Part shown: positions 9,619 to 60,314 of the stretch, piece by piece
Position numbering within the stretch: position 1 is the first letter of the stretch
How the letters are laid out: each line of letters starts with the position of its first letter
Origin: Pelobates cultripes
Lineage: Eukaryota; Chordata; Amphibia; Anura; Pelobatidae
NCBI GenBank assembly: GCA_933207985.1
Contig: OW240921.1
Location: 89,261,162-89,325,161, forward strand
Direction of reading: 5' to 3'
DNA: 64,000 nt
Position numbers and translations under genes: made by a program
The notes under the pieces: generated by a model
What the model was told of the DNA's origin: nothing
The model's input: only the letters and a program-made list of their open reading frames with translations
Database searches by the model: none

Positions 9619-10190
9619 TGTCAGGATCGTGACAGGGATCCAACACGCAGAATACAAACAGGGGATAGGTACGTATACCGGACCTTAGAATGGCCGGACT
9701 AACGTAAGGAGAAAGCAAAAGAATAGTCAGAGACAAGCCGAGGACGAGGGAACGAGAGATCAGGTAAGCGAGAGACAAGCCGAGTCAAAAGGACAAGAGA
9801 GGAAAGCAGGGTCAAAATACAAGCCGAGTCAAGAACCAAAAGACAATAGAGGTAAGTGCACTGAGTGACCAGACTAGCTAGAACCACGACAGGGCAATGA
9901 ATCATTCCACAGAACCCTTTTTTATACCTTGGCTCTTTAACTGTTGGCTCCGCCCCCAACGAGTCCTGATTCGTTGTTCGGCACTTGGTTGCCGTGATTG
10001 ACGGGTCGGAACGTGATTGCCGTCATGACGTCGGCTACTGGGCGCCGCGTCATAAAAGGAGGCGGAGCTATCGCGGCCGGCGTGTAAACGACCGGGAGGA
10101 GTGCAAGGATCGGGTGAGTCAGCCCCCCTGGGAGGATGGACGTCTAGGTGTCTAACCTCCTCCGAGGTAGACACCAAAGGTACCCTGACA
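9619..10190 (-). repeat. 3' LTR of the complete gypsy element
   Basis: 572 bp with TGTCAG/CTGACA ends. The pol frame continues into it and stops at 9902, just downstream of the TATA box on the minus strand. The opposite edge gives the CCTAC duplication. Confidence 0.95.
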
Positions 10191-13100
10191 GTACCCCCCC
10201 TCTCAGAAACGCCCACCGGGCGGAAGGAACCGGAGCGGAACGGAAAACGAGCATGAAATGCCCGGAGGAGACGAGGGGCATGCACATTTTCATGAACCAC
10301 CCAAGACCTTTCTTCAGGCCCATACCCCTTCCAGTCAACAAGATATTGCAACTTCCCCCGAGAAATACGAGAATCGAGAATGGATTTGATTTCATATTCC
10401 TCCTGACCCTCAACCTGGACAGCGAGAGGGGAGGACTCAGGGGAGGAAAATCTGTTGCAAACCAAAGGCTTCAATAAAGAAACATGAAAAGAGATAGGGA
10501 TGCGCAGGGCAGGCGGAAGGGCAAGACGATATGCAACCGGGTTAATCCGACACAGAACCTTGTAAGGGCCTATGTAACGAGGGGCAAATTTCATGGAAGG
10601 AACCTTCAAGCGGATGTTTCTGGTACTCAACCACACCCTATCACCCGGGGCAAAACCCGGAGCCACCCGTCTCCGTTTGTCAGCGTGTCGTTTGAACACC
10701 ATGGAATTCTGAAGAAGAATTCGTCGAGTCTGATCCCACAACTTTCTCAGATTGGCGACATGAACATCAACCGGCGGAACCCCTTGGGAAGGGGAAACCG
10801 ACGGAAGAATGGAAGGATGAAAGCCATAATTCAAGAAAAAGGGGCTAGAACGAGTAGAATCACAAACGAGATTGTTGTGTGCAAACTCTGCCCAAGGAAT
10901 CAGACCAACCCATTCGTCCTGGTGTTCAGAAACAAAACAACGCAAATATTGTTCAATCTTTTGGTTGGTGCGTTCGGCAGCTCCGTTGGACTGGGGATGA
11001 TAGGCAGAGGAGAAGTTCAACTTGATGCCTAAGTGAGCACAGAAAGACTTCCAAAAGCGGGAAACAAATTGGGAACCTCTATCAGAAACAATTTCAGAGG
11101 GAATACCATGTAGACGAAAAATCTCCCTCGCGAATATCTCAGCTAATTCGTGAGACGAGGGCAGTTTAGGCAAGGGCACGAAATGAGCCATTTTAGTAAA
11201 CCTGTCAATCACCGTGAGAATAACAGTATGTTTTTTAGAAACAGGCAAATCGACAATGAAGTCCATAGCCAAACACGACCATGGTCTCTCGGGAATTTCT
11301 AAGGGATGCAAAAGTCCACAAGGGAGCGTGTGAGGTTGCTTAGTCTTCATACAGACAGCACATGCCCTGACGAAATCCCTTATATCCTTACGAAGGGAAG
11401 GCCACCAGAAATCTTTAGAAATCAGGGAACACGTTTTGCGTATGCCGGGGTGCCCAGCAATTTTACTGTCATGAAAGCAATGCAGCAGTTCCACTTGGAG
11501 CTCAGGAGGAACGAAGTACCGAGCCCCAGGAACAGGTTTGGGAGCTAGATGTTGTACTTTCTTGATCTCAGCAAGCAACGGCGAGTGTATCCTGACACAA
11601 GTGTTGGCAATAATATTACACTTGGGAACGATAGAAGACAAAGCTGCTTCAGACACCGTAGAAGGTTCATGTTGACGGGACAATGCATCTGCCTTAGAGT
11701 TCTTAGAACCAGGTCTATAAGTGAGCACGTAATTGAAATGTGTCAGAAACAAGGACCAACGAGCTTGCCTGGCGGACAAGCGCTTGGCCTCCCCTATGTA
11801 GGACAAATTCTTGTGATCTGTCAAAATAGTAACCGGGTATAATGTCCCCTCCAACAAATGTCTCCATTCCTTTAAAGCCATAATGACCGCTAACAGTTCC
11901 CTATCACCAATGTCATATCTACTTTCAGGCCCAGATAATTTCTTGGAAAAAAACCCACAAGGATGTAACGGTTTATCCAAACCTAGCCTTTGGGACAAGA
12001 TAGCGCCTATACCTGTCTCCGAGGCGTCAACCTCGAGTAGAAAAGGCAAAGATGTGTCAGGATGAACTAATATCGGTGCTGAGGCAAAATGTTCCTTGAG
12101 AGTTTTGAAAGCAGAGAGAGCCTCTGTGGACCAAGTCTTGGTATCAGCCCCCTGTCTAGTCATATTAGTAATAGGAGCAATAATAGAAGAGTAACCTTTA
12201 ATGAAGCGCCTATAATAATTGGAAAATCCGATAAATCTCTGAATGGCCTTGAGTCCCCTGGGCAATGGCCAATCTAAAATCGATTGGAGTTTAATGGGGT
12301 CCATCCTAAATCCGTCTCCAGAAATAACGTAGCCAAGAAAGTTTATCTGAGATTGGTCGAAGCTACACTTTTCCAATTTGCAGTACAATCCATGTTGTAA
12401 CAGTTTGCGCAGTACCCTTCTGACTTGTCTGTGGTGAGTCTCAATCTCTCTAGAGTGTATTAGTATATCATCCAAATATACTATAACACATTCATGCTGA
12501 AATTCCCTAAGAACCTCATTAATAAGGTCCTGGAATACTGCAGGTGCATTGCAAAGCCCGAAGGGCATTACCGTGTATTCATAGTGGCCATAACGGGTAT
12601 TGAAAGCTGTTTTCCATTCGTCTCCCTGCTGAATTCTCACCAAGTTATAAGCTCCCCTCAAATCTAACTTGGTAAAAATCTTGGAGCCTTTCAGTCGATC
12701 AAAGAGCTCAGTAATTAAAGGAATAGGATAAGCATTTCTAACAGTTATCTTATTCAAGCCCCGATAATCAATGCAAGGCCGTAGAGTGCCGTCTTTTTTA
12801 TCTACAAAAAAGAAACCGGCCCCGGCCGGAGAAGATGATCTCCTAATAAAACCTTTGTCTAGGTTTTCACGTATGTACTCCTCTAGGACTAAGTTTTCCT
12901 TAGTGGATAAAGGATATACCGTACCCCTCGGAGGCATAGTACCAGGTAGGAGTCTAATTTTACAGTCGAAAGACCTATGTGGAGGTAAAGTATCAGCCCT
13001 CTTTTTGTCAAAGACTGCCTTTAAATCCTGGTACTGTGATGGTATCTGTAAATCTGTAGGTTGGGAAGAGTTAACCGGGGCGTCAACCCTGCAAATTGGT

Positions 13101-13576
13101 GAGACTTTCTGCACACATCCTCTCTGGCAACCCTGACCCCAGGAGACTATCTCACCCAGTTCCCAGTCAATGATAGGGTTATGCTTCTTAAGCCAGGGAT
13201 ACCCCAAGACTATAGGAACTGAAGGAGATGAGATCAGCATGAGGGATATTCTTTCCTCGTGAAGGATACCAGTGGTTAACTTAATTGGTATGGTTTCACG
13301 AAAAATCACAGGTTCAGATAATGGTCTACCATCTATGGCCTCAACGGCCAAGGGTGTATCCCTTAGCTGAGATGGGATAGAATGGTTAGTGACAAAGGCT
13401 TGGTCAATAAAGCTTTCAGCTGCTCCGGAATCTATCAAAGCCATAGCATTAAGTACTCCCTTTTCCCAAGCTAAAGAAACAGGTATCAGAAGCCTATGAT
13501 CTTTATAATCATAAATAGAGGACAAGATAGAAACACCCAAGGCCTGTCCTCTTGAGAAACTTAGGTGCGAGCGTTT
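9902..13576 (-). CDS. pol: Pol polyprotein (PR-RT-RNaseH-integrase-chromodomain), -1 frame to gag
   Basis: Pol makes the enzymes for reverse transcription and integration. There is no ATG near the start; the frame is entered from gag by -1 slippage at 13573-13579 (the next in-frame start-like codon is only a TTG at 13540). Counting from that TTG: aspartic protease DSGA at 37-40, RT with YLDD at 355-358, RNase H with D505, E548, D575 and D618, integrase zinc finger (H690, H697, C727, C730), integrase triad D760, D820, E856, GPY/F near 991 and a chromodomain near 1045-1095. All key residues are present. The frame passes through the polypurine tract (about residues 1112-1117) and adds roughly 95 residues encoded by U3 of the LTR. 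This extension is shared with the copy at 2-2773, so it is a family trait, though it may be removed or tolerated. Confidence 0.95.
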   Translation of the reverse strand, partial: KRSHLSFSRGQALGVSILSSIYDYKDHRLLIPVSLAWEKGVLNAMALIDSGAAESFIDQAFVTNHSIPSQLRDTPLAVEAIDGRPLSEPVIFRETIPIKLTTGILHEERISLMLISSPSVPIVLGYPWLKKHNPIIDWELGEIVSWGQGCQRGCVQKVSPICRVDAPVNSSQPTDLQIPSQYQDLKAVFDKKRADTLPPHRSFDCKIRLLPGTMPPRGTVYPLSTKENLVLEEYIRENLDKGFIRRSSSPAGAGFFFVDKKDGTLRPCIDYRGLNKITVRNAYPIPLITELFDRLKGSKIFTKLDLRGAYNLVRIQQGDEWKTAFNTRYGHYEYTVMPFGLCNAPAVFQDLINEVLREFQHECVIVYLDDILIHSREIETHHRQVRRVLRKLLQHGLYCKLEKCSFDQSQINFLGYVISGDGFRMDPIKLQSILDWPLPRGLKAIQRFIGFSNYYRRFIKGYSSIIAPITNMTRQGADTKTWSTEALSAFKTLKEHFASAPILVHPDTSLPFLLEVDASETGIGAILSQRLGLDKPLHPCGFFSKKLSGPESRYDIGDRELLAVIMALKEWRHLLEGTLYPVTILTDHKNLSYIGEAKRLSARQARWSLFLTHFNYVLTYRPGSKNSKADALSRQHEPSTVSEAALSSIVPKCNIIANTCVRIHSPLLAEIKKVQHLAPKPVPGARYFVPPELQVELLHCFHDSKIAGHPGIRKTCSLISKDFWWPSLRKDIRDFVRACAVCMKTKQPHTLPCGLLHPLEIPERPWSCLAMDFIVDLPVSKKHTVILTVIDRFTKMAHFVPLPKLPSSHELAEIFAREIFRLHGIPSEIVSDRGSQFVSRFWKSFCAHLGIKLNFSSAYHPQSNGAAERTNQKIEQYLRCFVSEHQDEWVGLIPWAEFAHNNLVCDSTRSSPFFLNYGFHPSILPSVSPSQGVPPVDVHVANLRKLWDQTRRILLQNSMVFKRHADKRRRVAPGFAPGDRVWLSTRNIRLKVPSMKFAPRYIGPYKVLCRINPVAYRLALPPALRIPISFHVSLLKPLVCNRFSSPESSPLAVQVEGQEEYEIKSILDSRISRGKLQYLVDWKGYGPEERSWVVHENVHAPRLLRAFHARFPFRSGSFRPVGVSERGGTVRVPLVSTSEEVRHLDVHPPRGADSPDPCTPPGRLHAGRDSSASFYDAAPSSRRHDGNHVPTRQSRQPSAEQRIRTRWGRSQQLKSQGIKKGSVE
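10194..10204 (-). other. Polypurine tract of the gypsy element
   Basis: On the minus strand GAGAGGGGGGG lies three bases before the 3' LTR; it would prime plus-strand DNA synthesis. It sits inside the open pol frame. Confidence 0.85.
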
Positions 13577-13579
13577 CCC
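13517..13579 (-). promoter_or_regulatory. -1 ribosomal frameshift signal: GGGAAAC plus H-type pseudoknot
   Basis: On the minus strand the heptamer G GGA AAC (13579-13573) is in the gag frame and lies four codons before the gag stop. After a 5-nt spacer comes stem 1, CACCTAAG (13567-13560) with CTTGGGTG (13541-13534), 8 bp with one G-U. Loop bases AGAGGACA (13552-13545) pair perfectly with TGTCCTCT (13524-13517) as stem 2. Loops are about 7, 3 and 9 nt, workable for an H-type pseudoknot. The pol frame is closed just upstream by a TAA and opens over exactly this overlap. GGGAAAC is the heptamer known in PEG10 and some retroviruses. The fold was found by eye. Confidence 0.88.
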
Positions 13580-14484
13580 GGCCGGTTAGGGCAATTTAGG
13601 CGGAGGTGACCTCTAATTCCGCAATACATACAAAGACCCTCCCTTCTCCTGTACTGTCTTTCCTCTTCTGAGAGTCGAGTATTACCTATTTGCATAGGTT
13701 CTGGGAGAGCTAAAGTAGTAGAATCAGAAGTCTGAAATGAGGGAGCTAGTCTTATGGAGGATCTGCGGGTTCTATCCCGAATATTCTGCCTCTGTCTCAT
13801 ACGTTCATCTATTCGGGAAATAAATGAAATCAGATCCTCCAAATTTTCAGGAAGATCTCTTGTGGCCACCTCATCTAAAATCTCATCAGATAACCCGTTC
13901 ATAAATACGTCCATATAAGCCTGTTCATTCCACTTGACCTCTGCCGCCAAGGATCTGAACTCCAAGGCATAATCCACTAGGGTTCGGTTATACTGTCTAA
14001 GACGTAACAGTAGTCTAGCTGCATTGGCCTTTCTTCCTGGAGGGTCAAAAGCTCTCCTAAATGCAGCGACAAAAGCATTATAATTATAAACTAACGGGTT
14101 ATCATTTTCCCACAGGGGGTTAGCCCATCTAAGTGCCTTGTCAATGAGCAAGGTAATTATAAATCCAACCTTTGCCCTGTCAGTGGGGTAGGCGTGGGGT
14201 TGTAATTCAAAATGAATACCTATCTGGTTTAAAAAACCTCGACAAGTGTCAGGAGCGCCGCCATAGCGTGACGGGGACGTAACACGGGAAGAAGTAGCCA
14301 CTGTGGCTACCTCTAGACCTGTACTTATAGGAGAGATAGATGGGGTACGCATCTCCTCTGAGTGACTACTAGGACGAGATAGCAATGCTTGCAGAGCTAG
14401 AGCCATCTGGTCCATTCTATGATCCATGGCCTCAAATCTAGAGTCAGGAGAACCGACCTGAGAGTTTGTACCTGCAGGATCCAT
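13561..14484 (-). CDS. gag: Gag protein, 307 aa, with CCHC zinc knuckle
   Basis: Gag forms the particle that packages the element RNA. The start chosen is the ATG at 14484 (MDPAGT...), only 14 nt inside the 5' LTR edge; the longer open frame upstream is LTR and primer-site sequence. A capsid-like central region (FLNQIGIHFELQP..., YNRTLVDYALEFRSLA, typical of Ty3/gypsy retrotransposon Gag) is followed by a basic stretch and a single C-x2-C-x4-H-x4-C knuckle (CMYCGIRGHLRLNC) right before the stop. The slippery site lies between knuckle and stop, so Gag-Pol keeps the knuckle. No breaks are seen. Confidence 0.93.
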   Translation of the reverse strand: MDPAGTNSQVGSPDSRFEAMDHRMDQMALALQALLSRPSSHSEEMRTPSISPISTGLEVATVATSSRVTSPSRYGGAPDTCRGFLNQIGIHFELQPHAYPTDRAKVGFIITLLIDKALRWANPLWENDNPLVYNYNAFVAAFRRAFDPPGRKANAARLLLRLRQYNRTLVDYALEFRSLAAEVKWNEQAYMDVFMNGLSDEILDEVATRDLPENLEDLISFISRIDERMRQRQNIRDRTRRSSIRLAPSFQTSDSTTLALPEPMQIGNTRLSEEERQYRRREGLCMYCGIRGHLRLNCPNRPGNART

Positions 14485-14486
14485 TG

Positions 14487-14496
14487 GCCCTGTCGT
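14487..14496 (-). other. Self-priming primer-binding site
   Basis: Two bases inside the 5' LTR, the minus strand reads ACGACAGGGC. This is the exact complement of GCCCTGTCGT (14775-14766), the segment about 31 bp after the LTR TATA box, where the transcript should begin. No tRNA 3' end is obviously matched. This is the arrangement of the Tf1/Sushi group, which primes from a folded 5' end of its own RNA. Confidence 0.85.
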
Positions 14497-14498
14497 AA

Positions 14499-15071
14499 TG
14501 TCAGGATCGTGACAGGGATCCAACACGCAGAATACAAACAGGGGATAGGTACGTATACCGGACCTTAGAATGGCCGGACTAACGTAAGGAGAAAGCAAAA
14601 GAATAGTCAGAGACAAGCCGAGGTCGAGGGAACGAGAGATCAGGTAAGCGAGAGACAAGCCGAGTCAAAAGGACAAGAGAGGAAAGCAGGGTCAAAATAC
14701 AAGCCGAGTCAGGAACCAAAAGACAATAGAGGTAATTGCACTGAGTGACCAGACTAGCTAGAACCACGACAGGGCAATGAATCATTCCACAGAACCCTTT
14801 TTTATACCTTGGCTCTTTAACTGTTGGCTCCGCCCCCAACGAGTCCTGATTCGGTTGTTCGGCACTTGGTTGCCGTGATTGACGGGTCGGAACGTGATTG
14901 CCGTCATGACGTCGGCTACTGAGCGCCGCGTCATAAAAGGAGGCGGAGCTATCGCGGCCGGCGTGTAAACGACCGGGAGGAGTGCAAGGATCGGGTGAGT
15001 CAGCCCCCCTGGGAGGATGGACGTCTAGGTGTCTAACCTCCTCCGAGGTAGACACCAAAGGTACCCTGACA
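14499..15071 (-). repeat. 5' LTR of the complete gypsy element, with promoter
   Basis: 573 bp. On the minus strand it has the TATA box (about 14798-14806), the predicted start GCCCTGTCGT at 14775-14766 and a CRE-like GCCGTCATGACG palindrome in U3 (near 14900). Differences from the 3' LTR are few (for example one extra G near 14853). Confidence 0.93.
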
Positions 15072-17730: not shown

Positions 17731-19355
17731 CAGTCAGGTCCATAAATATTTGGACATTGACACAATTCTAATCGTTTTGGCTCTATACACCACCACAATG
17801 GATTTGCAATTAAATGAACAAGGTGTCCTTTAACTGCAGACTTTCAGCTTTAATTTGAGGGTATTTACATTCAAATCAGGTGAACGGTGTAGGAATTACA
17901 ACAGTTTGTATATGTGCCTCCCCCTTTTCAAGGGACCAAAAGTAATGGGACAATTGGCTGCTCAGCTGTTCCATTGCAAGGTGTGTGTTATTTCCTCATT
18001 ATCCCATTTACAAGGAGCAGGTAAAAGGTCCAGAGTTCATTTCAAGTGTGCTATTTGCATTTGGAATCTGTTGCTGTCAACTCTCAATATGAGATCCAAA
18101 GAGCTGTCACTATCAGTGAAGCAAGCCATCATTAGGCTGAAAAACAAAACAAACCCATCGGAGAGTTAGCAAAAACATTAGGTGTAGCCAAATCAACTGT
18201 TTGAAACATCCTTAAAAAGAAAGAACGCACCGGTGAGCTCAGCAACACCAAAAGACTCGGAAGACCACAGAAAACAACTGTGGTGGATGACCGAAGAATT
18301 CTTTCCCTGGTGAAGAAAACACCCTTCACAACAGTTGGCCAGATCAAGAACACTCTCCAGGAGGTAGGTGTATGTGTGTCAAAGTCAGAGTGAATACAGA
18401 GAGTTCACCACAAGATGTAAACCATTGGTGAGCCTCAAAAACAGGAAGGCCAGATTAGAGTTTGCCAAACAACATCTAAAGATGCCTTCACAGTACTGGA
18501 ACAACTTCCTATGGACAGATGAGACCAAGATCAACTTGTACCAGAGTGATGGGAAGAGAAGAGTATGGAGAAGGAAAGGAACTGCTCATGAGCCAAAGCA
18601 TACCACCTCATCAGTGAAGCATGGTGGTGGTAGTGTCATGGCGTGGGTATGTATGGCTGCCAATGGAACTGGTTCTCTTGTATTTATTGATGATGTGACT
18701 GCTGGCAAAAGCAGCAGGATGAATTCTAAAGTGTTTCGGGCAATATTATCTGCTCATATTCAGCCAAATGCTTCAGAACTCATTGGACGGCGCTTCACAG
18801 TGCAGATGAACAATGAACTGAAGCATATTGCAAAAGCAACCAAAGAGTTTTTTAAGGGAAAGAAGTGGAATGTTATTCAATGGCCAAGTCAATCACCTGA
18901 CCTGAATCCGATTGAGCATGCATTTCAATTGATGAAGACAAAACTGAAGGGAAAATGCCCCAAGAACAAGCAGGAACTGAAGACAGTTGCAGTAGAGGCC
19001 TGGCAGAGCATCACCAGGGATGAAACCCAGCGTCTGGTGATGTCTATGCGTTCCAGACTTCAGGCTGTAATTGACTGCAAAGGATTTGCAACCATGTATT
19101 AAAAAGTCAAAGTTTGATTTATGACTGTTAATCTGTCCCATTACTTTTGGTCCCTTAAAAAGTGGGAGGCAAATATACAAACTGTTGTAATTCCTACACC
19201 GTTCACCTGATTTGGATGTAAATACCCTTAAATTAAAGCTGAAAGTCTGCAGTTAAAGCACATCTTGTTTGTTTCATTTCAAACCCATTGTGTTGGTGTA
19301 TAGAGCCAATAAGATTAGAATTGTGTCGATGTCCCAATATTTATGGACCTGACTG
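17731..19355 (+). mobile_element. Tc1-like DNA transposon, 1,625 bp
   Basis: TA dinucleotides flank it (17729-17730, 19356-19357). The inverted repeats begin CAGTCAGGTCCATAAATATT and are about 220 bp long, as in the IR/DR subgroup; each inner end holds GGGACCAAAAGTAATGGGAC or its complement. It encodes one damaged transposase. Confidence 0.93.
18080..19102 (+). pseudogene. Tc1-like transposase, inactive
   Basis: Tc1 transposases cut and paste the element at TA sites using an N-terminal paired-like HTH pair and a DDE catalytic domain. The N-terminal part (MRSKELSLSVKQAIIRLKN from about 18089) is broken by a frameshift near 18140-18170, an in-frame TGA near 18201 (where Trp is usual) and another frame change near 18370. 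The DDE part is open from 18368 to 19102: the first Asp is in LWTDETKI and the Glu in SPDLNPIE, but the second catalytic segment, usually DND-PKH-like, reads MNNELKHIA, so the Asp is replaced by Asn. The copy cannot encode an active enzyme. Confidence 0.92.
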
Positions 19356-42539: not shown

Positions 42540-43547
42540 ATGGGAGGCAATAAAAAACGGAGGGAGCACACGCCGTCGGTGGCCACCCTGTTTCGCGCCT
42601 CTGAGCAGGGTCGGCCATCTTCGGCCCCGAACACTCAGCAATCTGGCTCCGACTCGGAGGATGGCGAGATGCCAGAGGACTCCTCCGCACCCATCACGAT
42701 GGGCAACCTGAGGAGACTCCTCAGAGAAACGTCCGCGGACATCAAAACCTACACTGCGGCGGAATTGGAGAAACAAATGGCGGGCCTTAAGGGCGACATA
42801 GACGTGCTCACAACCCGCGCAACGCAGGCCGAGCAAGACATCAGGGACCTGTCCCAAACAACGCAAGCCCAACGGCAAGAACTCCTCACCATGCAGGACA
42901 GAATAGTGCAACTGGAAGATGGCCTGGAAGATCTCAATAATCGATCTCGCCGGAAAAACATCAGGATCCGTGGTCTGCCAGAATCGGTGCCACCGGAGGC
43001 CGTCCTCACTACGGTCCAAGAGATCTTCCGCAACCTCCTCCCAGACGCAGCAGCCCATGATCTATCCATAGAACGGGCACATAGAGCATTGCGGCCCCCC
43101 ACGCCTAATCTAGCCTCACCGAGAGATATAATAGTGAAGCTGCTCCTATTCACCACCAAAGAAAAGCTGATGGCGGCGGCCCGCTCCAACCCACCGACAC
43201 ACCAAGAGCAGCAGCTGCAGTTCTTTCACGACTTGGCGCCTACAACCCTGCGAAAACGGAGGGAACTGAAACCCCTCACCGCCTCGTTGTTACAGCACGG
43301 ATGGAAATATACATGGGGCCACCCGTTCAAGTTAATGGTCCGGAAGGACAATAAAGCCTATACCCTGCACTATCCTGCTGACATGTCGGATTTTGCCAAA
43401 CATATTGGAGTCCCGCTCCTCCAAACATCCGCACCCTCAGACACAGCACCGCAACGCTCCAGCCGCACATCGCAAACGACCGACGCGACTTCCCTACGCA
43501 TACCGCAGAAGAGCAAGCTGCAGCAGACCCCGAAGAAACCAGCTTGA
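42540..43547 (+). CDS. L1 ORF1 protein, 335 aa
   Basis: ORF1p binds the element's RNA as a trimer and acts as a chaperone in the ribonucleoprotein. The start is the ATG in CCCACCATGGG, a near-ideal Kozak context. Order: a polar, Ser/Asp/Glu-rich N-terminus (1-55), a heptad-rich coiled coil (about 60-135), an RRM-type domain opening with RRKNIRIRGLPE (about 138-149) and containing IERAHR and DIIVKLLLF, and a C-terminal domain with LLQHGWKYTWGHPFKLMV (about 250-267). Length is like mammalian L1 ORF1p (about 340 aa). The tail after 290 is Ser/Thr/Lys-rich. Upstream lies only the short UTR; downstream is the unusually long spacer. Confidence 0.93.
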   Translation: MGGNKKRREHTPSVATLFRASEQGRPSSAPNTQQSGSDSEDGEMPEDSSAPITMGNLRRLLRETSADIKTYTAAELEKQMAGLKGDIDVLTTRATQAEQDIRDLSQTTQAQRQELLTMQDRIVQLEDGLEDLNNRSRRKNIRIRGLPESVPPEAVLTTVQEIFRNLLPDAAAHDLSIERAHRALRPPTPNLASPRDIIVKLLLFTTKEKLMAAARSNPPTHQEQQLQFFHDLAPTTLRKRRELKPLTASLLQHGWKYTWGHPFKLMVRKDNKAYTLHYPADMSDFAKHIGVPLLQTSAPSDTAPQRSSRTSQTTDATSLRIPQKSKLQQTPKKPA

Positions 43548-45784: not shown

Positions 45785-48700
45785 ATGGCACCCCCACTGA
45801 CGTGTCTCTCCATCAATTGTAAGGGCCTCAACAACCCCCTCAAGCGCCACCAAACCATGCGATGGGCAAACAGAACCCGCGCTCACATTATTTTCCTGCA
45901 AGAAACCCATTTCCAACACAATAGGACTTTCCCCCTCCAGAATAGAAATTACAACAGGACCTATCTTGCTAACTCACCGACAGGCAAACAAAACGGAGTG
46001 GCAATACTACTGCACAAAGCATGTCCCCTTACTGTGGAGAAAACAGAGGCAGACCCACAAGGGAGATATGTAACGGCGGCAGGGACAATAGGCACCCAAA
46101 AATACGCCTTTACCTCGATCTATGCTCCCAATGTCCCCTCCACCTCCTTCTGGCTAGCGCTACAAGCACATTTAGCATTATTCTCCTCCTACCACTTGGT
46201 ATTAGGAGGGGACTGCAACGCCACCCCATCCCCAGCGATGGATAGACACAGGGCAGGCCGCCAAGCGGCATCTCGGGGTCGCACGGCAACCTCTGACAAA
46301 CTTCTCCAAGCCTTCCTCACGCGCACACACCTTGTGGACGTGTGGAGGGCGCAACACCCGGCCGTTCGGGATTATACATTCTATTCCCACCCCCACCAAT
46401 CCCACTCACACATAGACATATTCTTGACCTCCCCATCGGTGATACCGATGATCAAATCCACGACCATAGGATCAATCACGTGGTCAGACCACGCCGAGAT
46501 ATCACTTAGCCTCGATCCACCGGCCACGACCCGCCGATGGCAGTGGCGCCTGAACCCCACACTATTGCATAACCCAGAGATCAGAGACCATATCTCTCAA
46601 GCAATCGCCGACTATTTCACATTGAACCAACACTCAGTCACCACACAGGGGACACTATGGGCGGCGCATAAGGCAGTAATTCGTGGCACCCTAATAAGTC
46701 AAGCCACCCACCACAAGAAAAAACGCCTAGCAAAACTAGAACATAACCTGAAAGAACTCCGCTCACTGGAAATCGCCTTCAAAACCCAACCCACTCCAGA
46801 CTTAACTGTTAAAATACGCCAACTTCAGACGGCCATAAAAGACTTCATGTCCACGGACACAGTCCGGGCCCTCCAATGGACCCGCCAGCTCTTTTACGAG
46901 AAGTCCAACAAAGCGGACACTTTACTTGCCCGTAAACTCAATCGCAGAACCGCACATAAACGAATCACCAAAATCCACTCTAGAGAGGGACAGCTGCAGG
47001 ACTCACCAGACCAAATAGCTAAGATATTCCAAGAATACTTCTCGGAGCTCTATGATCATAGCCCCCAACACAGACGGGACCCCACGCCACTAACCACCAA
47101 AATCAACGAATACCTCGACTCTATCACCCTACCCTCACTAACACCCGAAGGGGCTAGCCGACTGTCCGAAGAAATTACTATAGAAGAAATAGCAAAAGCA
47201 CTCAAAACACTAAAACCAAACAAATGCCCAGGCCCAGACGGATTCTCGGGGTTATATTACAAAACCTTTGCGTCGACCCTAATCCCGCAACTAAGCAAAC
47301 TCTACAACTCACTCCTACAGGGAGACCCCTTGCCCCCTGATATGCTGCAGGCAAACATCTGCCTCCTGCCGAAACCTGGCAAGACCCACCTCGAGCCCGG
47401 ACATTACAGACCAATATCCCTACTAAATGTAGACGTCAAACTATTCACGAAGGTGATGGCGGAAAGACTTAACCCCCTCCTCCCTCGACTTATCCACCCA
47501 GATCAAGTAGGCTTTATCCCACACAGACAAGCCAGTGATAACACTAGGCGCACCTTTGACCTTATCTGGTACACCAACCGCAGACGCATACCGACCTTGC
47601 TATTATCCCTAGACGCCGAAAAGGCATTTGACAGATTGCTATGGCCCTTTCTTTTCGCCACCTTACAGAAATTCGGCTTCCCCTCACCCTTCCTGGATGC
47701 ACTGAAGACCCTCTACTCTTCCCCCACGGCCACTCTTCTCCTACAATCGACGACAGCCCCTTCCTTCCAAATCAGGAATGGAACGCGACAAGGGTGCCCA
47801 CTCTCCCCCATCCTCTTCGCCATCTCTCTTGAACCACTACTCCAAGTCCTGCGTAACCACAACGAGATCCAAGGAGTGCGAATTAGGGATGAAACTTATA
47901 AAATAGCGGCATATGCAGATGATGTACTCCTGTCAATAACAGACCCTTTGAACTCCCTGCCACCCCTGTCCATGGAGCTAGCGAAATACGCACAACTTTC
48001 GGGATACAAACTCAACCTAGGAAAAACTGAGGTCCTCCCAATCCAAGTAGATCAAACCACTCTCCAAAACCTCCAAAGGAGACACCCGTTCACATATCAG
48101 ACCACAGCCCTGAAATACCTAGGTATCACGCTCCCAGCGGACCTCACACAAACCTACAGCTTAAACTTCACACCCCTGCTAGCGACGGCCACACAAGACT
48201 TAGCAAAATGGAAAAACATGTCGATCTCATGGATCGGCCGAACGACCTCGATCAAAATGAACCTCCTCCCGAGGTTCCTATACCTCTTCCAGACCCTTCC
48301 AATACCGATCCTAGCCTCTGACTTTAAAAAACTTAAAACTCAAATAGACAAGTTTATATGGGCGGGAAAAAGAGCGCGCATAGCTCGACGCACATTGTAC
48401 ATACCAAATCGGCAGGGTGGACTAGGACTTCCCAACCTTACCCACTACTTCTACGCGGCACAAATTGCACAGACAATCCAACTCCACGCGGCCCCTGGCC
48501 TTAAGAGATGGGTAGACCTAGAACATAATATATTTGGGTCAGATTTTCCCTCTCTCTATATCTGGCTCCCAAAAGACGCCAGGCCACCGATTCCCATCAC
48601 CTCCCCAGCTATTCTCACCATGATAAACATTTGGGATAAAATCACCCAAAAACATAACCTTATCTCCCAGCCCTCCCCACTAATGCCCATCCTCCAGAAC

Positions 48701-49765
48701 ACTAAATTCACGCCAGGTATGAACCCAAAGGACTTCGTCCGTTACGAAGACAACGACTTGATTCGCATTCACCAATTTTACAAAAACCAATCTATCATAC
48801 CCTTCGCAGAACTCCCACAACAGACCCCCTTCATAGCTCGCGACCTCTTCCGGTACATACAGATCCGCAGCTACATAGAAAAACCAGTCTTAGTGAAAGC
48901 GAGCAACTCCCCTCTCACACTGCTGGAAAAAGCGTGCAACACACATCCACTAGGCACGGGACAAATATCAATCTTATACTCCTTACTAAGCAGGCAACCA
49001 CGAGAGGGATCTCTGTCCTACACTGCAGCCTGGGAGAGAGACCTTGGCCCCATAGGGAATCAGAGCGATTGGGCAGACATTTGGGAAGCTACAGCAACGG
49101 TATCGATCTGTGTCAATCATAAAGAACAAGCATACAAAACCCTCCTCCGATGGTACGTCACCCCACTACGCCTGAAACAAATGAAACAAGCAGATAACGA
49201 TCTGTGCTGGAAGGGTTGCGGGAACAGAGGCACATATACTCACATGTGGTGGGAGTGCCCCCGGGTAACCACTCTGTGGCAACATATGGCACGACTCGCC
49301 ACACAGGTTCTACACACCACGATCCCGTTAGACCCCTGGCTATGGCTCCTATCCAGACCACTCAAAAACACCCCAAGGGCACAAAACAAACTACTGGCCA
49401 AGCTAGCCCTGGCCACCAGACGAGCGATAGCGGAGAAATGGGGGAGCCCAGATGTCCCGTCCACCACAACCATAACACAGAAAATTAACGATGCCATGCA
49501 AATGGACAAACTAACTGCCCTAATACACGACAATACCAAACACTTCAACAAAATATGGGAGCCATGGATCTTCGAATTCCCCACCCTGCCGAACGTCCCA
49601 TTAGGGGGGGTGGACCAGGTGGGAGGGAACACCCGAGGTCCTCCAACACGGCCGAGTGACCCACCCACACAGAGCGATGCTCGACCTCTGGCTAACACAC
49701 CTAGGACCAGACCACACTGTCCAGCAGACATCCAAAGTAGAGAGGACAAACAGTGTCACAGGTAA
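45785..49765 (+). CDS. L1 ORF2 protein, 1,326 aa (APE endonuclease + reverse transcriptase)
   Basis: ORF2p nicks the target and copies the LINE RNA there (target-primed reverse transcription). The start is the ATG in GATCCATGG. The endonuclease has all expected residues: N11 (SINCKGLN), E40 (LQETH), Y113 (YAPN), D143/N145 (GGDCNA), D211 (HIDIF) and D235/H236 (WSDHAE). The RT begins near 470 with CPGPDGFSGLYYK, then LLPKPGK, YRPISLLNVDVKLFTKV, SLDAEKAFDRL, RNGTRQGCPLSP and AYADD (709-713), the catalytic box. The C-terminus has the Cys/His motif C-x3-C-x7-H-x4-C near 1140-1156. No stop or frameshift. Length is close to mammalian L1 ORF2p (about 1,275). Confidence 0.96.
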   Translation: MAPPLTCLSINCKGLNNPLKRHQTMRWANRTRAHIIFLQETHFQHNRTFPLQNRNYNRTYLANSPTGKQNGVAILLHKACPLTVEKTEADPQGRYVTAAGTIGTQKYAFTSIYAPNVPSTSFWLALQAHLALFSSYHLVLGGDCNATPSPAMDRHRAGRQAASRGRTATSDKLLQAFLTRTHLVDVWRAQHPAVRDYTFYSHPHQSHSHIDIFLTSPSVIPMIKSTTIGSITWSDHAEISLSLDPPATTRRWQWRLNPTLLHNPEIRDHISQAIADYFTLNQHSVTTQGTLWAAHKAVIRGTLISQATHHKKKRLAKLEHNLKELRSLEIAFKTQPTPDLTVKIRQLQTAIKDFMSTDTVRALQWTRQLFYEKSNKADTLLARKLNRRTAHKRITKIHSREGQLQDSPDQIAKIFQEYFSELYDHSPQHRRDPTPLTTKINEYLDSITLPSLTPEGASRLSEEITIEEIAKALKTLKPNKCPGPDGFSGLYYKTFASTLIPQLSKLYNSLLQGDPLPPDMLQANICLLPKPGKTHLEPGHYRPISLLNVDVKLFTKVMAERLNPLLPRLIHPDQVGFIPHRQASDNTRRTFDLIWYTNRRRIPTLLLSLDAEKAFDRLLWPFLFATLQKFGFPSPFLDALKTLYSSPTATLLLQSTTAPSFQIRNGTRQGCPLSPILFAISLEPLLQVLRNHNEIQGVRIRDETYKIAAYADDVLLSITDPLNSLPPLSMELAKYAQLSGYKLNLGKTEVLPIQVDQTTLQNLQRRHPFTYQTTALKYLGITLPADLTQTYSLNFTPLLATATQDLAKWKNMSISWIGRTTSIKMNLLPRFLYLFQTLPIPILASDFKKLKTQIDKFIWAGKRARIARRTLYIPNRQGGLGLPNLTHYFYAAQIAQTIQLHAAPGLKRWVDLEHNIFGSDFPSLYIWLPKDARPPIPITSPAILTMINIWDKITQKHNLISQPSPLMPILQNTKFTPGMNPKDFVRYEDNDLIRIHQFYKNQSIIPFAELPQQTPFIARDLFRYIQIRSYIEKPVLVKASNSPLTLLEKACNTHPLGTGQISILYSLLSRQPREGSLSYTAAWERDLGPIGNQSDWADIWEATATVSICVNHKEQAYKTLLRWYVTPLRLKQMKQADNDLCWKGCGNRGTYTHMWWECPRVTTLWQHMARLATQVLHTTIPLDPWLWLLSRPLKNTPRAQNKLLAKLALATRRAIAEKWGSPDVPSTTTITQKINDAMQMDKLTALIHDNTKHFNKIWEPWIFEFPTLPNVPLGGVDQVGGNTRGPPTRPSDPPTQSDARPLANTPRTRPHCPADIQSREDKQCHR

Positions 49766-55300: not shown

Positions 55301-56153
55301 GGAGACTTGTATATATCCACCTGCAGGGCCGGACTGGGAAAAAAATTCGGCCTGGGCATTTTTTATCACAGCGGCCCACTAAGAAGGGGGCGGGGCTGAA
55401 AGGGTGTGTTTTGTCATCACTCATGACAAACACGCCCCCTCTCAAAGTGAGCATGTTGGTTCAATGCTCTTCCAGGGCAGACCATGCACAGAGCTCTGCT
55501 GAAGAGCTCTAGCATGAGAAAAAAAGCCCTGTATTTGTTCTGCACAGTGCAAGCAAATTTAATAACATGCTTGCACTGTGTTTCCTTGCAACTTGTCTCT
55601 GGTGTCTCTATAAATGGATACCAGGAGACAAAGGGGCCAGGAAAGAGTATTGTGCATGTGTTTGGAGCCTGCTTGTGGTATTGCGTGTGTGCAGAGTGAG
55701 CTGGTCGTGGTGTGGTATTGTGTAATAAGGTCGGTTTTAGTCGTGTTTTGTTTGTGGTGTAATGTAATGCATATGTGGCTAGGGGCTGTAGAGAATGTGT
55801 CTATAGGGGATGTAGCAAGTGTGTGTATACAGGCTATAGTGTGTGTGTGTGTGTGTGTGTGTGTATACAGGCTATAGTGTGTGTGTGTGTGTGTGTTCAG
55901 GGAATGTATGGGTTTGCTTACAATGAATCTAGTGTGCGTATAGGGGATCCAGAGTGTGTGTGTGTGTGTGTGTGAAGGACCCAGACTACGTATAGGAGAT
56001 CTAGTGAGCGTGCGTATATAACGGATTCAGAGTGTATATAGGGATCTAGTGTGTGTAGATGATTCAGAGTTGGGTAGAGGATCTAGTGTGTGTCTGGAAT
56101 GAAATGTGTTTAGGGGTGCTGTGTGTGTGTGTGTGTGGGTGTGTGAGGGGTGC

Positions 56154-56184
<31 letters not shown>

Positions 56185-56249
56185 ATATGTTTGGAAGTAT
56201 TGTGTATGTGTGTGATGCAGTGTATCGGGGGGTTGTGTGTGTATGTGAG

Positions 56250-57010
56250 GGGTGCAGTATGTGTGTGTGAGTGCTGTGTATGATGTGTGTGAGTGCTGTG
56301 TATGATGGGTGTGAGTGCTGAGTGTGCTGTGTATGATGTGTGTGAATGCTGTGTATGATGTGTGTGAGTGTTGAGTGTGATGTGTGTGAGTGCTGTGTAT
56401 GATGTGTGTGAGTGCAGTGTATGATGTGTGTGAGTGCTGAGTGTAATAGTGCTGTGTATGATGTGTGTGAGTGTTATGTATGTGTGTGAGTGCTGTGTAT
56501 GATGTGTGTGAGTGCTGTGTATGATGTGTGTGAGTGCTGAGTGTGATGTGTGTGAGTGTTGTGTATGATGTGTGTGAGTGCTGAGTGTGATGTGTGTGAG
56601 TGCTGTGTATGATGTGTGTGAGTGCTGAGTGTAATAGTGCTGTGTATGATGTGTGTGAGTGCTGTGTATGATGTGTGTGAGTGCTGAGTGTAATAGTGCT
56701 GTGTATGATGTGTGTGAGTGCTGAGTGTAATAGTGCTGTGTATGATGTGTGTGAGTGCTGAGTGTAATAGTGCTGTGTATGATGTATGTGAGTGCTGAGT
56801 GTAATAGTGCTGTGTATGATGTGAGTGCTGAGCGTAATAGTGCTGTGTATGATGTGTGTGAGTGCTGTGTATGATGTGTGTGAGTGCTGAGCGTAATAGT
56901 GCTGTGTATGATGTGTGTGAGTGCTGTGTATGATGTGTGTGAGTGCTGAGTGTAATAGTGCTGTGTATGATGTGTGTGAGTGCTGAGTGTGCTGAGTGTG
57001 AGAGTGCTGT
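56250..57010. repeat. Minisatellite in the left hAT-like copy
   Basis: Units of about 21 bp, TGTGTGAGTGCTGTGTATGA, alternate with a variant TGAGTGTAATAGTGCTGTGTA. Long open minus-strand frames rich in His/Thr/Ser are translations of the array. Confidence 0.9.
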
Positions 57011-57229
57011 GTATAAATGTTGTGTGTTAGGGGGTAAATAAACAAATAAAAACCTAAGTGGGACTAAATATACAAATAAAAAAAATAAGGGGGGTAAATA
57101 AACAAAAACACTAATCATGCATTATCCCCCCCCTCCCCTTACCTGTAGCCTGGGAGGAGGAGGGGTCCGGCACGCTGGTGAGTGGGGGGACCAGCACTCA
57201 CACACGATCCCAGGTGGTCCAATGGTGAC

Positions 57230-57278
57230 TCTCGCGAGATCGGGGCGTTGCCATGGCAACGCTCCCGATCTCGCGAGA
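57230..57278. promoter_or_regulatory. Palindrome: RFX X-box between two TCTCGCGAGA motifs (left copy)
   Basis: TCTCGCGAGA at 57230-57239 and 57269-57278 flank GTTGCCATGGCAAC (57247-57260). Each motif is itself a perfect palindrome. The central one equals the consensus X-box bound by RFX dimers; TCTCGCGAGA is a known CpG-promoter element. Function here is inference. Confidence 0.7.
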
Positions 57279-57531
57279 GGAACCCGGCTGAGCTACAAGA
57301 TAGAGCTCCGCCAGGTCCTCTCCCTCTCTCCCCAGCCGCCCCTCCATGGAAGACAGCTTTGATCTCCCCACCGGCCCTCCATGGAAGACAGCAGGGCCGG
57401 CGCTCGGATAGTGCCGGCCCTGCATAGACCGGCAGGGGATGTCCTGGGACCTCCCCTGCCGGCCTCGGCCCCACGGACACCGCGGCCCACCGGGCATTTG
57501 CCCTCTGTGCCCGATGGCCAGTCCGGGCCTG

Positions 57532-57621
57532 CTCCCTGCTCTTATTTAATTAAAAGTGCAGATATTTACAAAAATCCTTATAACTATAATCATGCCCTTT
57601 TCTCAAACCATCACAGGTGGA
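57532..57621. other. 90-bp spacer between the inverted hAT-like copies, apparently inverted
   Basis: It begins CTCCCTGC, the reverse complement of the right outer flank GCAGGGAG (59912-59919), and ends CAGGTGGA, the reverse complement of the left outer flank TCCACCTG (55316-55323). Turning this segment round restores a perfect 8-bp duplication for each element. Confidence 0.9.
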
Positions 57622-57888
57622 CAGGCCCGGACTGGCCATCGGGCACAGAGGGCAAATGCCCGGTGGGCCGCGGTGTCCGTGGGGCCGAGGCCGGCAGGGG
57701 AGGTCCCAGGACATCCCCTGCCGGTCTATGCAGGGCCGGCACTATCCGAGCGCCGGCCCTGCTGTCTTCCATGGAGGGCCGGTGGGGAGATCAAAGCTCT
57801 CCCTCACCGGCCCATTTAAACAGACCTGCGGCTGGGGAGAGAGGGAGAGGACCCGGCGGAGCTCTATCTTGTAGCTCAGCCGGGTTCC

Positions 57889-57937
57889 TCTCGCGAGATC
57901 GGGAGCGTTGCCATGGCAACGCCCCGATCTCGCGAGA
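57889..57937. promoter_or_regulatory. Palindrome: RFX X-box between two TCTCGCGAGA motifs (right copy)
   Basis: TCTCGCGAGA at 57889-57898 and 57928-57937 around GTTGCCATGGCAAC at 57907-57920; conserved unchanged between the two copies. Confidence 0.7.
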
Positions 57938-58149
57938 GTCACCATTGGACCACCTGGTATCGTGTGTGAGTGCTGGTCCCCCCCACTCACCAGCGTGCCG
58001 GACCCCTCCTCCTCCCAGGCTACAGGTAAGGGGAGGGGTGGGGGGGGGGGATAATGCATGATTAGTGTTTTTGTTTATTTACCCCCCTTATTTTTTTTTT
58101 ATTTGTATATTTAGTCCCACTTAGGTTTTTATTTGTTTATTTACCCCCT

Positions 58150-59000
58150 AACACACAACATTTATACACAGCACTCACACACATCATACACAGCACTATT
58201 ACACTCAGCACTCACACACATCATACACAGCACTATTACACTCAGCACTCACACACATCATACACAGCACTCACACACATCATACACAGCACTATTACGC
58301 TCAGCACTCACACACATCATACACAGCACTATTACACTCAGCACTCACACACATCATACACAGCACTCACACACATCATACACAGCACTCACACACATAC
58401 ACAACACTCACACACATCATACACAGCACTATTACACTCAGCACTCACACACATCATACACAGCACTATTACACTCAGCACTCACACACATCATACACAG
58501 CACTATTACACTCAGCACTCACACACATCATACACAGCACTCACACACATCATACACAGCACTTTTACACTCAGCACTCACACACATCATACACAGCACT
58601 CACACACATCATACACAGCACTATTACACTCAGCACTCACACACATCATACACAGCACTCACACACATCATACACAGCACTATTACACTCAGCACTCACA
58701 CACATCATACACAGCACTCACACACATCATACACAGCACTATTACGCTCAGCACTCACACACATCATACACAGCACTCACACACATCATACACAGCACTA
58801 TTACGCTCAGCACTCACACACATCATACACAGCACTATTACACTCAGCACTCACACACATCATACACAGCACTCACACACATCATACACAGCACTCACAC
58901 ACATCACACTCAGCACTCACACACATCATACACAGCACTCACACACATCATACACAGCACTCACACACATCATACACAGCACTCACACACACATACTGCA
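58150..59000. repeat. Minisatellite in the right hAT-like copy
   Basis: Complement of the array at 56250-57010, with more units; built of CACTCACACACATCATACACAG-type repeats and CACTATTACACTCAG variants. Confidence 0.9.
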
Positions 59001-60314
59001 CCCCTCACATACACACACAACCCCCCGATACACTGCATCACACACATACACAATACTTCCAAACATATTTATATTATATATATATATATATATATACACA
59101 CAGCACCCCTCACACACACACAGCACCCCTAAACACATTTCATTCCAGACACACACTAGATCCTCTACCCAACTCTGAATCATCTACACACACTAGATCC
59201 CTATATACACTCTGAATCCGTTATATACGCACGCTCACTAGATCTCCTATACGTAGTCTGGGTCCTTCACACACACACACACACTCTGGATCCCCTATAC
59301 GCACACTAGATTCATTGTAAGCAAACCCATACATTCCCTGAACACACACACACACACACACACACTATAGCCTGTATATATACACACACACACACACTAT
59401 AGCCTGTATACACACACTTGCTACATCCCCTATAGACACATTCTCTACAGCCCCTAGCCACATATGCATTACATTACACCACAAACACAACACGACTAAA
59501 ACCGACCTTATTACACAATACCACACCACGACCAGCTCACTCTGCACACACACAATACCCCAAGCAGGCTCCAAACACATGCACAATACTCTTTCCTGGC
59601 CCTTTTGTCTCCTGGTATCCATTTATAGAGACACCAGAGACAAGTTGCAAGGAAACACAGTGCAAGCATGTTATTAAATTTGCTTGCACTGCACAGAACA
59701 AATACAGGGCTTTTTTCTCATGCTAGAGCTCTTCAGCAGAGCTCTGTGCATGGTCTGCCCTTGAAGAGCATTGAACCAACATGCTCACTTTGAGAGGGGG
59801 CGTGTTTGTCATGAGTGATGACAAAACACACCCTTTCAGCCCCGCCCCCTTCTTAGTGGGCCGCTGTGATAAAAAATGCCCAGGCCAAATTTTTTTCCCA
59901 GTCCGGCCCTGGCAGGGAGATAGGGACATGGGACCCCTTTGCACCATAATCAATGCAGATAGTATATATTAGCAAGTATGTCAGTCTGCTATCATTTAAG
60001 CCTCAATGGACTTTGGGTGAAAAGGTTATAGATTCTCTTATATTAAAGTATTAATTTAATAGCCTCTAGAATCAATAGAAATCGCTCCAAAGCAATGCTG
60101 CTGAAGCCGACCTAAAAGAATAGTGTATATTAAAAATGAATGGGGAAAAAAATGAAAGTGCTTTTTTTTTTCTTGAGTAAAACTCTGATTCCCATAGCTG
60201 TGGGAGAACCATGGGAAATAAAATCTCAGCTATTTTGAGCAATGCTGTCCTTAAAACCCTTGACACATCCTACATAAAGCTCATGAAAGTCCAATGCAAT
60301 TCTGCTGTCTCTAA

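What the first reader, a model, noticed from the sequence alone, without database searches (positions are those of the whole stretch)
55316..59919. Swapped target duplications show that the DNA between two inverted hAT copies was flipped
Left copy: flanks TCCACCTG and CTCCCTGC. Right copy: flanks CAGGTGGA and GCAGGGAG. The outer left flank is the reverse complement of the inner right one, and the outer right flank that of the inner left. Two 8-bp duplications are both broken and both restored perfectly by inverting the 90 bp between the elements. The simplest history is two independent insertions in opposite orientation, then homologous recombination between the 2.2-kb arms.
Basis: partly seen in the sequence, partly recalled or inferred. 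Interest (0 to 1): 0.85.

Follow-up and report, generated by a model that had tools for sequence, protein, structure and literature searches.

The report
Flipped spacer between two inverted transposons
In what looks like a spadefoot toad genome, two copies of a small 'hAT'-like transposon sit head to head and the 90 letters between them appear to have been turned around, a known kind of small rearrangement that is cleanly recorded here.

Summary
Two non-autonomous hAT-like elements (L 55324-57531, +; R 57622-59911, -) carry two 8-bp target duplications in exchanged positions. All 37 single copies elsewhere with both ends found have matching duplications; the composite L035 does not. Two diverged paralogs align without a gap across reversed spacer, one GCAGGGAG site and the outer right flank, so the spacer is inverted against the ancestral order; only the right junction could be tested so.

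It predicts copies identical at birth. L and R look more like two separately transposed copies: their arrays lie within the range of separate copies, all 8 left-end substitutions between them are variants seen in other copies, and kinship varies along the element. Against this, they share rare left-end states and are weak sisters in a tree. I favour two insertions, then inversion by recombination or template switching (0.65). An assembly flip is not excluded. L035, 23 Mb away on the same chromosome, also has exchanged duplications. Known kind, new member.

The parts
55316..55323 (+). outer-left copy of duplication 1 (TCCACCTG)
55324..57531 (+). L element: non-autonomous hAT-like transposon, left terminus CAGGGCCGGACTGG, right terminus CCAGTCCGGGCCTG
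56257..57014 (+). tandem array (periods of about 22, 37 and 59 bp) inside L
57340..57357 (+). L-private block: 18 bp, like a stretch just downstream, in place of 32 bp kept in R; its 14-bp gap is in none of the other 34 rows compared
57532..57539 (+). inner-left copy of duplication 2 (CTCCCTGC, reverse complement of GCAGGGAG)
57540..57613 (-). 74-bp spacer, inverted against its ancestral order
57614..57621 (+). inner-right copy of duplication 1 (CAGGTGGA, reverse complement of TCCACCTG)
57622..59911 (-). R element: second copy in opposite orientation, right termini of both copies facing inward
58164..58996 (-). tandem array inside R, with a unit order different from that in L
59912..59919 (+). 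outer-right copy of duplication 2 (GCAGGGAG)

Best explanation
Two members of a young non-autonomous hAT-like family inserted in opposite orientation, 74 bp apart net of target duplications. Each made its own 8-bp duplication, TCCACCTG and GCAGGGAG. The two inverted arms of about 2.2 kb later recombined, by a crossover or by replication template switching between arms. This turned the spacer over and exchanged the inner copies of the two duplications. Parts of the arms, probably the spacer-proximal 175 bp and the outer 150 bp, were made alike by gene conversion. Shown: structure, exchange, and spacer inversion against paralogs at the right junction. Inferred: order of events, homology-dependent inversion, conversion.
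For: Exact exchange of both duplications. Matching duplications in 37 of 37 single copies with both ends found. Two paralogs, C2:23515886-23515952 and C2:17273122-17273204, run ungapped across reversed spacer, one GCAGGGAG site and right flank (54 of 67 and 62 of 83 identical). L and R look like separate family members: their middle parts (arrays) score 0.863 against each other, a value reached by 12.7% of all 561 pairs of 34 copies, each is closer to L010 than to the other, and the segmental duplicates L040/L041 score 0.987. All 8 substitutions between L and R in the left 480 bp have both states among 55 other copies; a simple model gives 0.276 for one new substitution to do so, and 12.9% of 381 comparable pairs have it at all sites. 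In left 150-478 the L-R distance is 7/327, the 52nd percentile of other pairs, while the ends are closer (1/149, 10th; 0/175, 2.7th). In the composite L035, one copy shares 231G (with L033 alone of the rest) and a deletion at 352 (L033 and one more) with L033 and not with its partner.
Against: L and R are the only places with C58+T76+A79 in the 30-mer scanned (2 of 27 within one mismatch), and they are sisters in a 57-row left-end tree (support 80/86), which would fit identity at birth. The arrays, though not outstanding, are more alike than 87% of pairs. The kinship controls are thin: the segmental duplicates L040/L041 also differ at only three left sites, and at each both states occur elsewhere. 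The closeness of the ends may be shared subfamily rather than conversion: L072 is as close to L in left 1-150 (1 difference), and the right-end type is common (708 places) but copies of that type were not in the comparison. Site clustering is weak if only rare shared states are used (p 0.049). Two random insertions so close are unlikely a priori (inference, no number). No other individual and no reads were available.
Confidence: 0.65

Rival explanations
1. Sister-chromatid hybrid element insertion. One element inserted at TCCACCTG. After replication, transposase joined the left end of one sister's copy with the right end of the other sister's copy and inserted them 74 bp away at GCAGGGAG. In one step this doubled the element in inverted orientation and inverted the intervening DNA.
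For: The in-silico product equals the recombination product letter for letter and contains all four observed junctions. L and R share rare left-end states and are sisters in the left-end tree. It needs no second independent insertion nearby. Both compound pairs met among the scored copies are flipped. Maize Ac/Ds makes sister-chromatid and other alternative transpositions (PMC3744419, passages; that Ac is a hAT is recalled).
Against: It predicts copies identical at birth (PMC2775673, passages). The arrays of L and R differ as in separate copies, while segmental duplicates keep theirs. Differences in left 150-478 match variants in other copies.
Confidence: 0.15
2. Assembly flip. The animal carries two ordinary inverted insertions with matching duplications, and the assembler put the spacer in the wrong way round.
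For: The genome matches Pelobates cultripes aPelCul1.1, a merge of MaSuRCA and Flye hybrid assemblies with about 22x Nanopore and haplotigs purged (PMC9164646, passages). The arms are nearly alike and contain hard tandem arrays. The composite L035 could suffer the same error.
Against: The window has no N. The L-private block lies about 175-190 bp from the spacer, within reach of read pairs (2x250 reads, trimmed to 2x150 for the assembly; a library is called PE480). Mate pairs of 3 and 8 kb and Nanopore reads were used. No read was examined here.
Confidence: 0.14
3. Local hop then flip. One copy is the daughter of the other, re-inserted 74 bp away in opposite orientation after replication; the arms then recombined.
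For: Explains the shared rare left-end states and the closeness of the pair. Copies of one lineage can differ in their arrays: L018 and L046 have 0 left differences but middle parts of 1043 and 491 bp.
Against: Differences between L and R in left 150-478 match variants in other copies.
Confidence: 0.06

Closest known systems
Galileo-made inversions of Drosophila buzzatii (PMC2775673; passages seen)
   Same: [quoted passage not shown] each target occurs once in uninverted DNA
   Different: P superfamily, 7-bp duplications, large chromosomal inversions with reciprocal chimeras shown; here a hAT-like element, a 90-bp segment, and no reciprocal chimera shown
hAT-derived MITEs at Atlantic cod inversion breakpoints (PMC12368964; passages seen)
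   Same: Non-autonomous hAT elements with tandem repeats in a vertebrate, linked to inversions by ectopic recombination
   Different: Large chromosomal inversions; the terms 'exchanged' and 'target site duplication' do not occur in its main text
Alternative transposition of maize Ac/Ds and P-element hybrid element insertion (PMC3744419; passages seen)
   Same: The sister-chromatid form would give the same letters
   Different: Predicts copies identical at birth, not favoured here
Template-switch spacer inversion between inverted repeats in yeast (PMC8604942; passages seen)
   Same: Inverts the spacer and can homogenise the arms
   Different: Arms of about 10-16 bp and spacers of a few bp in the cases seen; arms of 2.2 kb and 90 bp here

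Membership tests
non-autonomous hAT element | 8-bp target duplication | tested here: met
   37 of 37 single copies with both ends found
non-autonomous hAT element | short terminal inverted repeats | tested here: met
   CAGGGCCGGACTGG / CAGGCCCGGACTGG, 13 of 14 alike; that hAT ends often begin CAG is recalled
non-autonomous hAT element | hAT target preference (nTnnnnAn, recalled) | tested here: inconclusive
   36 distinct duplications: T at position 2 in 15, A at 7 in 12; stronger T at 3 (21) and A at 6 (19)
non-autonomous hAT element | kinship to a hAT transposase source | not tested
   Five ORFs of at least 110 aa overlap the elements, three of them array translations by eye; none was scanned against a library and no autonomous partner was sought
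inversion by ectopic recombination between transposons | two copies in opposite orientation with exchanged duplications | tested here: met
inversion by ectopic recombination between transposons | ancestral order with single-copy target | tested here: inconclusive
   met at the right junction in two diverged paralogs; left junction not covered; no allele of this locus seen
inversion by ectopic recombination between transposons | reciprocally chimeric copies | tested here: inconclusive
   kinship varies along the element, but no reciprocal parents found
hybrid element insertion | two copies identical at birth | tested here: inconclusive
   against: arrays and shared variants; for: rare shared states and sister tree
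template-switch spacer inversion | spacer inverted and arms homogenised beside it | tested here: inconclusive
   spacer inverted; spacer-proximal 0/175 differences between arms, which shared subfamily or a crossover would also give

The most novel reading that the evidence does not exclude
A vertebrate hAT-like element made an inverted duplication and a local inversion in one transposition reaction between sister chromatids. The exchanged duplications that are read as a mark of ectopic recombination would then be ambiguous in vertebrate genomes, and the L035 composite (an element with a family member inserted in itself, flipped) would be a self-insertion of the same kind.
Probability: 0.15. 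Interest if true: 0.6.

Novelty: new member of a known kind. Interest (0 to 1): 0.3.

Why it matters
It is a clean, small record that inverted transposon pairs can turn over the DNA between them, with both original insertion sites readable and the ancestral order checked against paralogs at one junction. It also shows that exchanged target duplications alone do not separate recombination from alternative transposition; kinship between the copies is needed. A young family with intact duplications could be surveyed genome-wide to measure how often such flips happen.

Tried and rejected
Chance match: rejected (4^-16). Ordinary un-exchanged pair: the inner-left and inner-right junctions do not occur in the model parent. 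Private right-end kinship of L and R: first read as private against 34 other rows, then rejected because the same right-end 25-mer has 708 places within one mismatch. The CA/TG dinucleotide difference in the left part as proof of separate origin: rejected, since the segmental duplicates L040/L041 also differ there. In the first left-end tree, of 60 rows, L and R were not sisters; the long-branch row L075 sat beside L, and I rebuilt it without L075, L053 and L054. The 24 added rows had been picked by closeness to the L/R 30-mer; L057 was dropped as too short. For the left segments I also dropped L064, L066, L068 and L070. The site lists of the clustering test were typed.

Left-end-inward pairs and wider spacings could not be surveyed: the genome search stayed busy. 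Paper searches gave one paper each, seen as listings only; neither title concerns alternative transposition of a vertebrate hAT element. One paper was not held.

Full report
What is there. The window lies at C10:89261162-89325161 of a 3.086-Gb genome. L (55324-57531, +) and R (57622-59911, -) are the only two copies of their family found in the window. They meet by their right ends across 90 bp. The family is numerous (4511 first-look candidates) and young: of 39 loci examined, 32 hold a single full-length copy and all 32 have matching 8-bp duplications; so do the 5 of 7 more in which both ends were found. The exception is the composite L035, below.

Is the spacer really inverted? I searched the genome with the predicted empty site (156 nt). 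Besides the window's own three pieces it found two diverged places on C2 (81% and 75%; E 3.7e-8 and 5.4e-6). Both align without a gap across the last 35-37 bp of the reversed spacer, one GCAGGGAG site (exact in one, two changes in the other) and 24-38 bp of the right flank: 54 of 67 and 62 of 83 letters. With the spacer in its assembled orientation only the duplication and flank align. This supports the flip independently of the duplications. The left junction is not covered by these paralogs, and they are not alleles of this locus.

Two histories give the same letters. A script built (a) two opposite insertions followed by inversion between the arms and (b) one insertion followed by joining of the left end of one sister copy and the right end of the other at a site 74 bp away, in the inverting orientation. 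The products are identical and contain all four observed junctions. The Galileo paper makes the same point: the outcomes differ only in that the copies are identical under hybrid insertion and chimeric under recombination (PMC2775673, passages).

Kinship of L and R, for identity at birth. In the first 150 bp they share rare states: C58+T76+A79 together occur only in L and R (2 of 27 places within one mismatch); T76, with either state at 58 and 79, occurs at 3 exact places of 495 within one mismatch. A left-end tree of 57 rows makes them sisters with support 80/86, not decisive; in the 60-row tree before three rows were dropped they were not sisters. They are identical over the 175 right-end columns next to the spacer, although that right-end type is common (708 places).

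Kinship of L and R, against identity at birth. Their middle parts (arrays) score 0.863, a value reached by 12.7% of 561 pairs of copies: fairly alike, but each is closer to L010 than to the other, whereas the segmental duplicates L040/L041 score 0.987 and have the same unit string. All 8 substitutions between L and R in the left 480 bp have both states among 55 other copies. A simple mutation model gives 0.276 for one new substitution to do so; two of the eight are at a dinucleotide that also differs between L040 and L041, so six remain. The control is small: the three left differences between L040 and L041 also have both states elsewhere. In left 150-478 L and R are as far apart as the median pair (7/327, 52nd percentile), in left 1-150 close (1/149), in right 55-405 close (2/310) and at the right end identical. 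L072 is as close to L in left 1-150 as R is, and in right 55-405 both L and R are one difference from L010, L011, L014 and L017, so part of this closeness is shared subfamily. The clustering of shared against differing sites has permutation p 0.005 with all shared sites and 0.049 with rare ones only. I read this as two separate copies, some of whose parts were made alike by conversion.

A second case. At C10:112397217-112400610 (L035 2233-5626) one element carries a complete copy inserted into its right end, and the end piece cut off by that insertion stands inverted on the other side. The outer flanks are GTCTCTAG on both sides, and the inner 8-mers GCCGGCAC and GTGCCGGC are reverse complements, so this too has exchanged duplications. 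One copy there shares two states (231G; deletion at 352) with L033 on C1 and not with its partner, and its array is closer to that of L033 (0.944) than to its partner's (0.884), which favours separate copies plus inversion. Both compound pairs met among the 40 scored candidates were flipped, which by itself would fit hybrid insertion as well. The numbers are too small to decide.

Genome survey. With exact ends, the window pair is the only right-end-inward pair with 48-108 bp between, and there is no direct pair at that spacing. Left-end-inward pairs and other spacings did not complete.

Mechanism. Most likely: two insertions, then homology-dependent inversion. Crossover and template switching cannot be told apart. 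Template switching between inverted repeats is known to invert spacers and homogenise arms in yeast, on a smaller scale (PMC8604942, passages). Shown: structure, exchange, inversion against paralogs at one junction. Inferred: order, process, conversion. Not excluded: hybrid insertion, assembly flip, local hop.

Noticed in passing
L035 2233-5626 (C10:112397217-112400610): Second composite of the same family with exchanged duplications: an element with a family member inserted in its right end and the interior turned over.
   Followed up: partly
window 55543-55544 (L) and the matching place in R, L035a/b, L040/L041: A CA/TG dinucleotide in the left part differs within three closely linked or duplicated pairs, though not within the fully identical pair L061/L062; GCACAGTGC is a perfect short inverted repeat, so templated switching is a likely cause (inference).
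   Followed up: partly
window 57340-57357: L has 18 bp, like a stretch just downstream, in place of 32 bp kept in R (one arm of a hairpin by eye); looks like a short-range template switch private to L among the rows compared.
   Followed up: partly
L040 (C7) and L041 (C1); L061 and L062 (both C4): Segmental duplicates: L040/L041 99.0% identical including flanks on different chromosomes; L061/L062 100% identical over 3030 bp.
   Followed up: partly
target sites of the family: Duplications prefer T at position 3 (21 of 36) and A at position 6 (19 of 36) rather than the recalled hAT pattern nTnnnnAn.
   Followed up: partly
window 14-2773 (+), 9902-14658 (-): LTR-retrotransposon frames (gag; and protease, reverse transcriptase, RNase H, integrase, chromodomain in the minus-strand set); a very similar pol frame, by eye, lies on the plus strand at the window start.
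   Followed up: no
window 42540-43547 and 45785-49765 (+): LINE-like frames: a weak L1 ORF1-like match below cut-off, and an endonuclease plus reverse transcriptase frame of 1326 aa.
   Followed up: no
window 18368-19102 (+): Tc1/mariner-type transposase frame (DDE_3).
   Followed up: no
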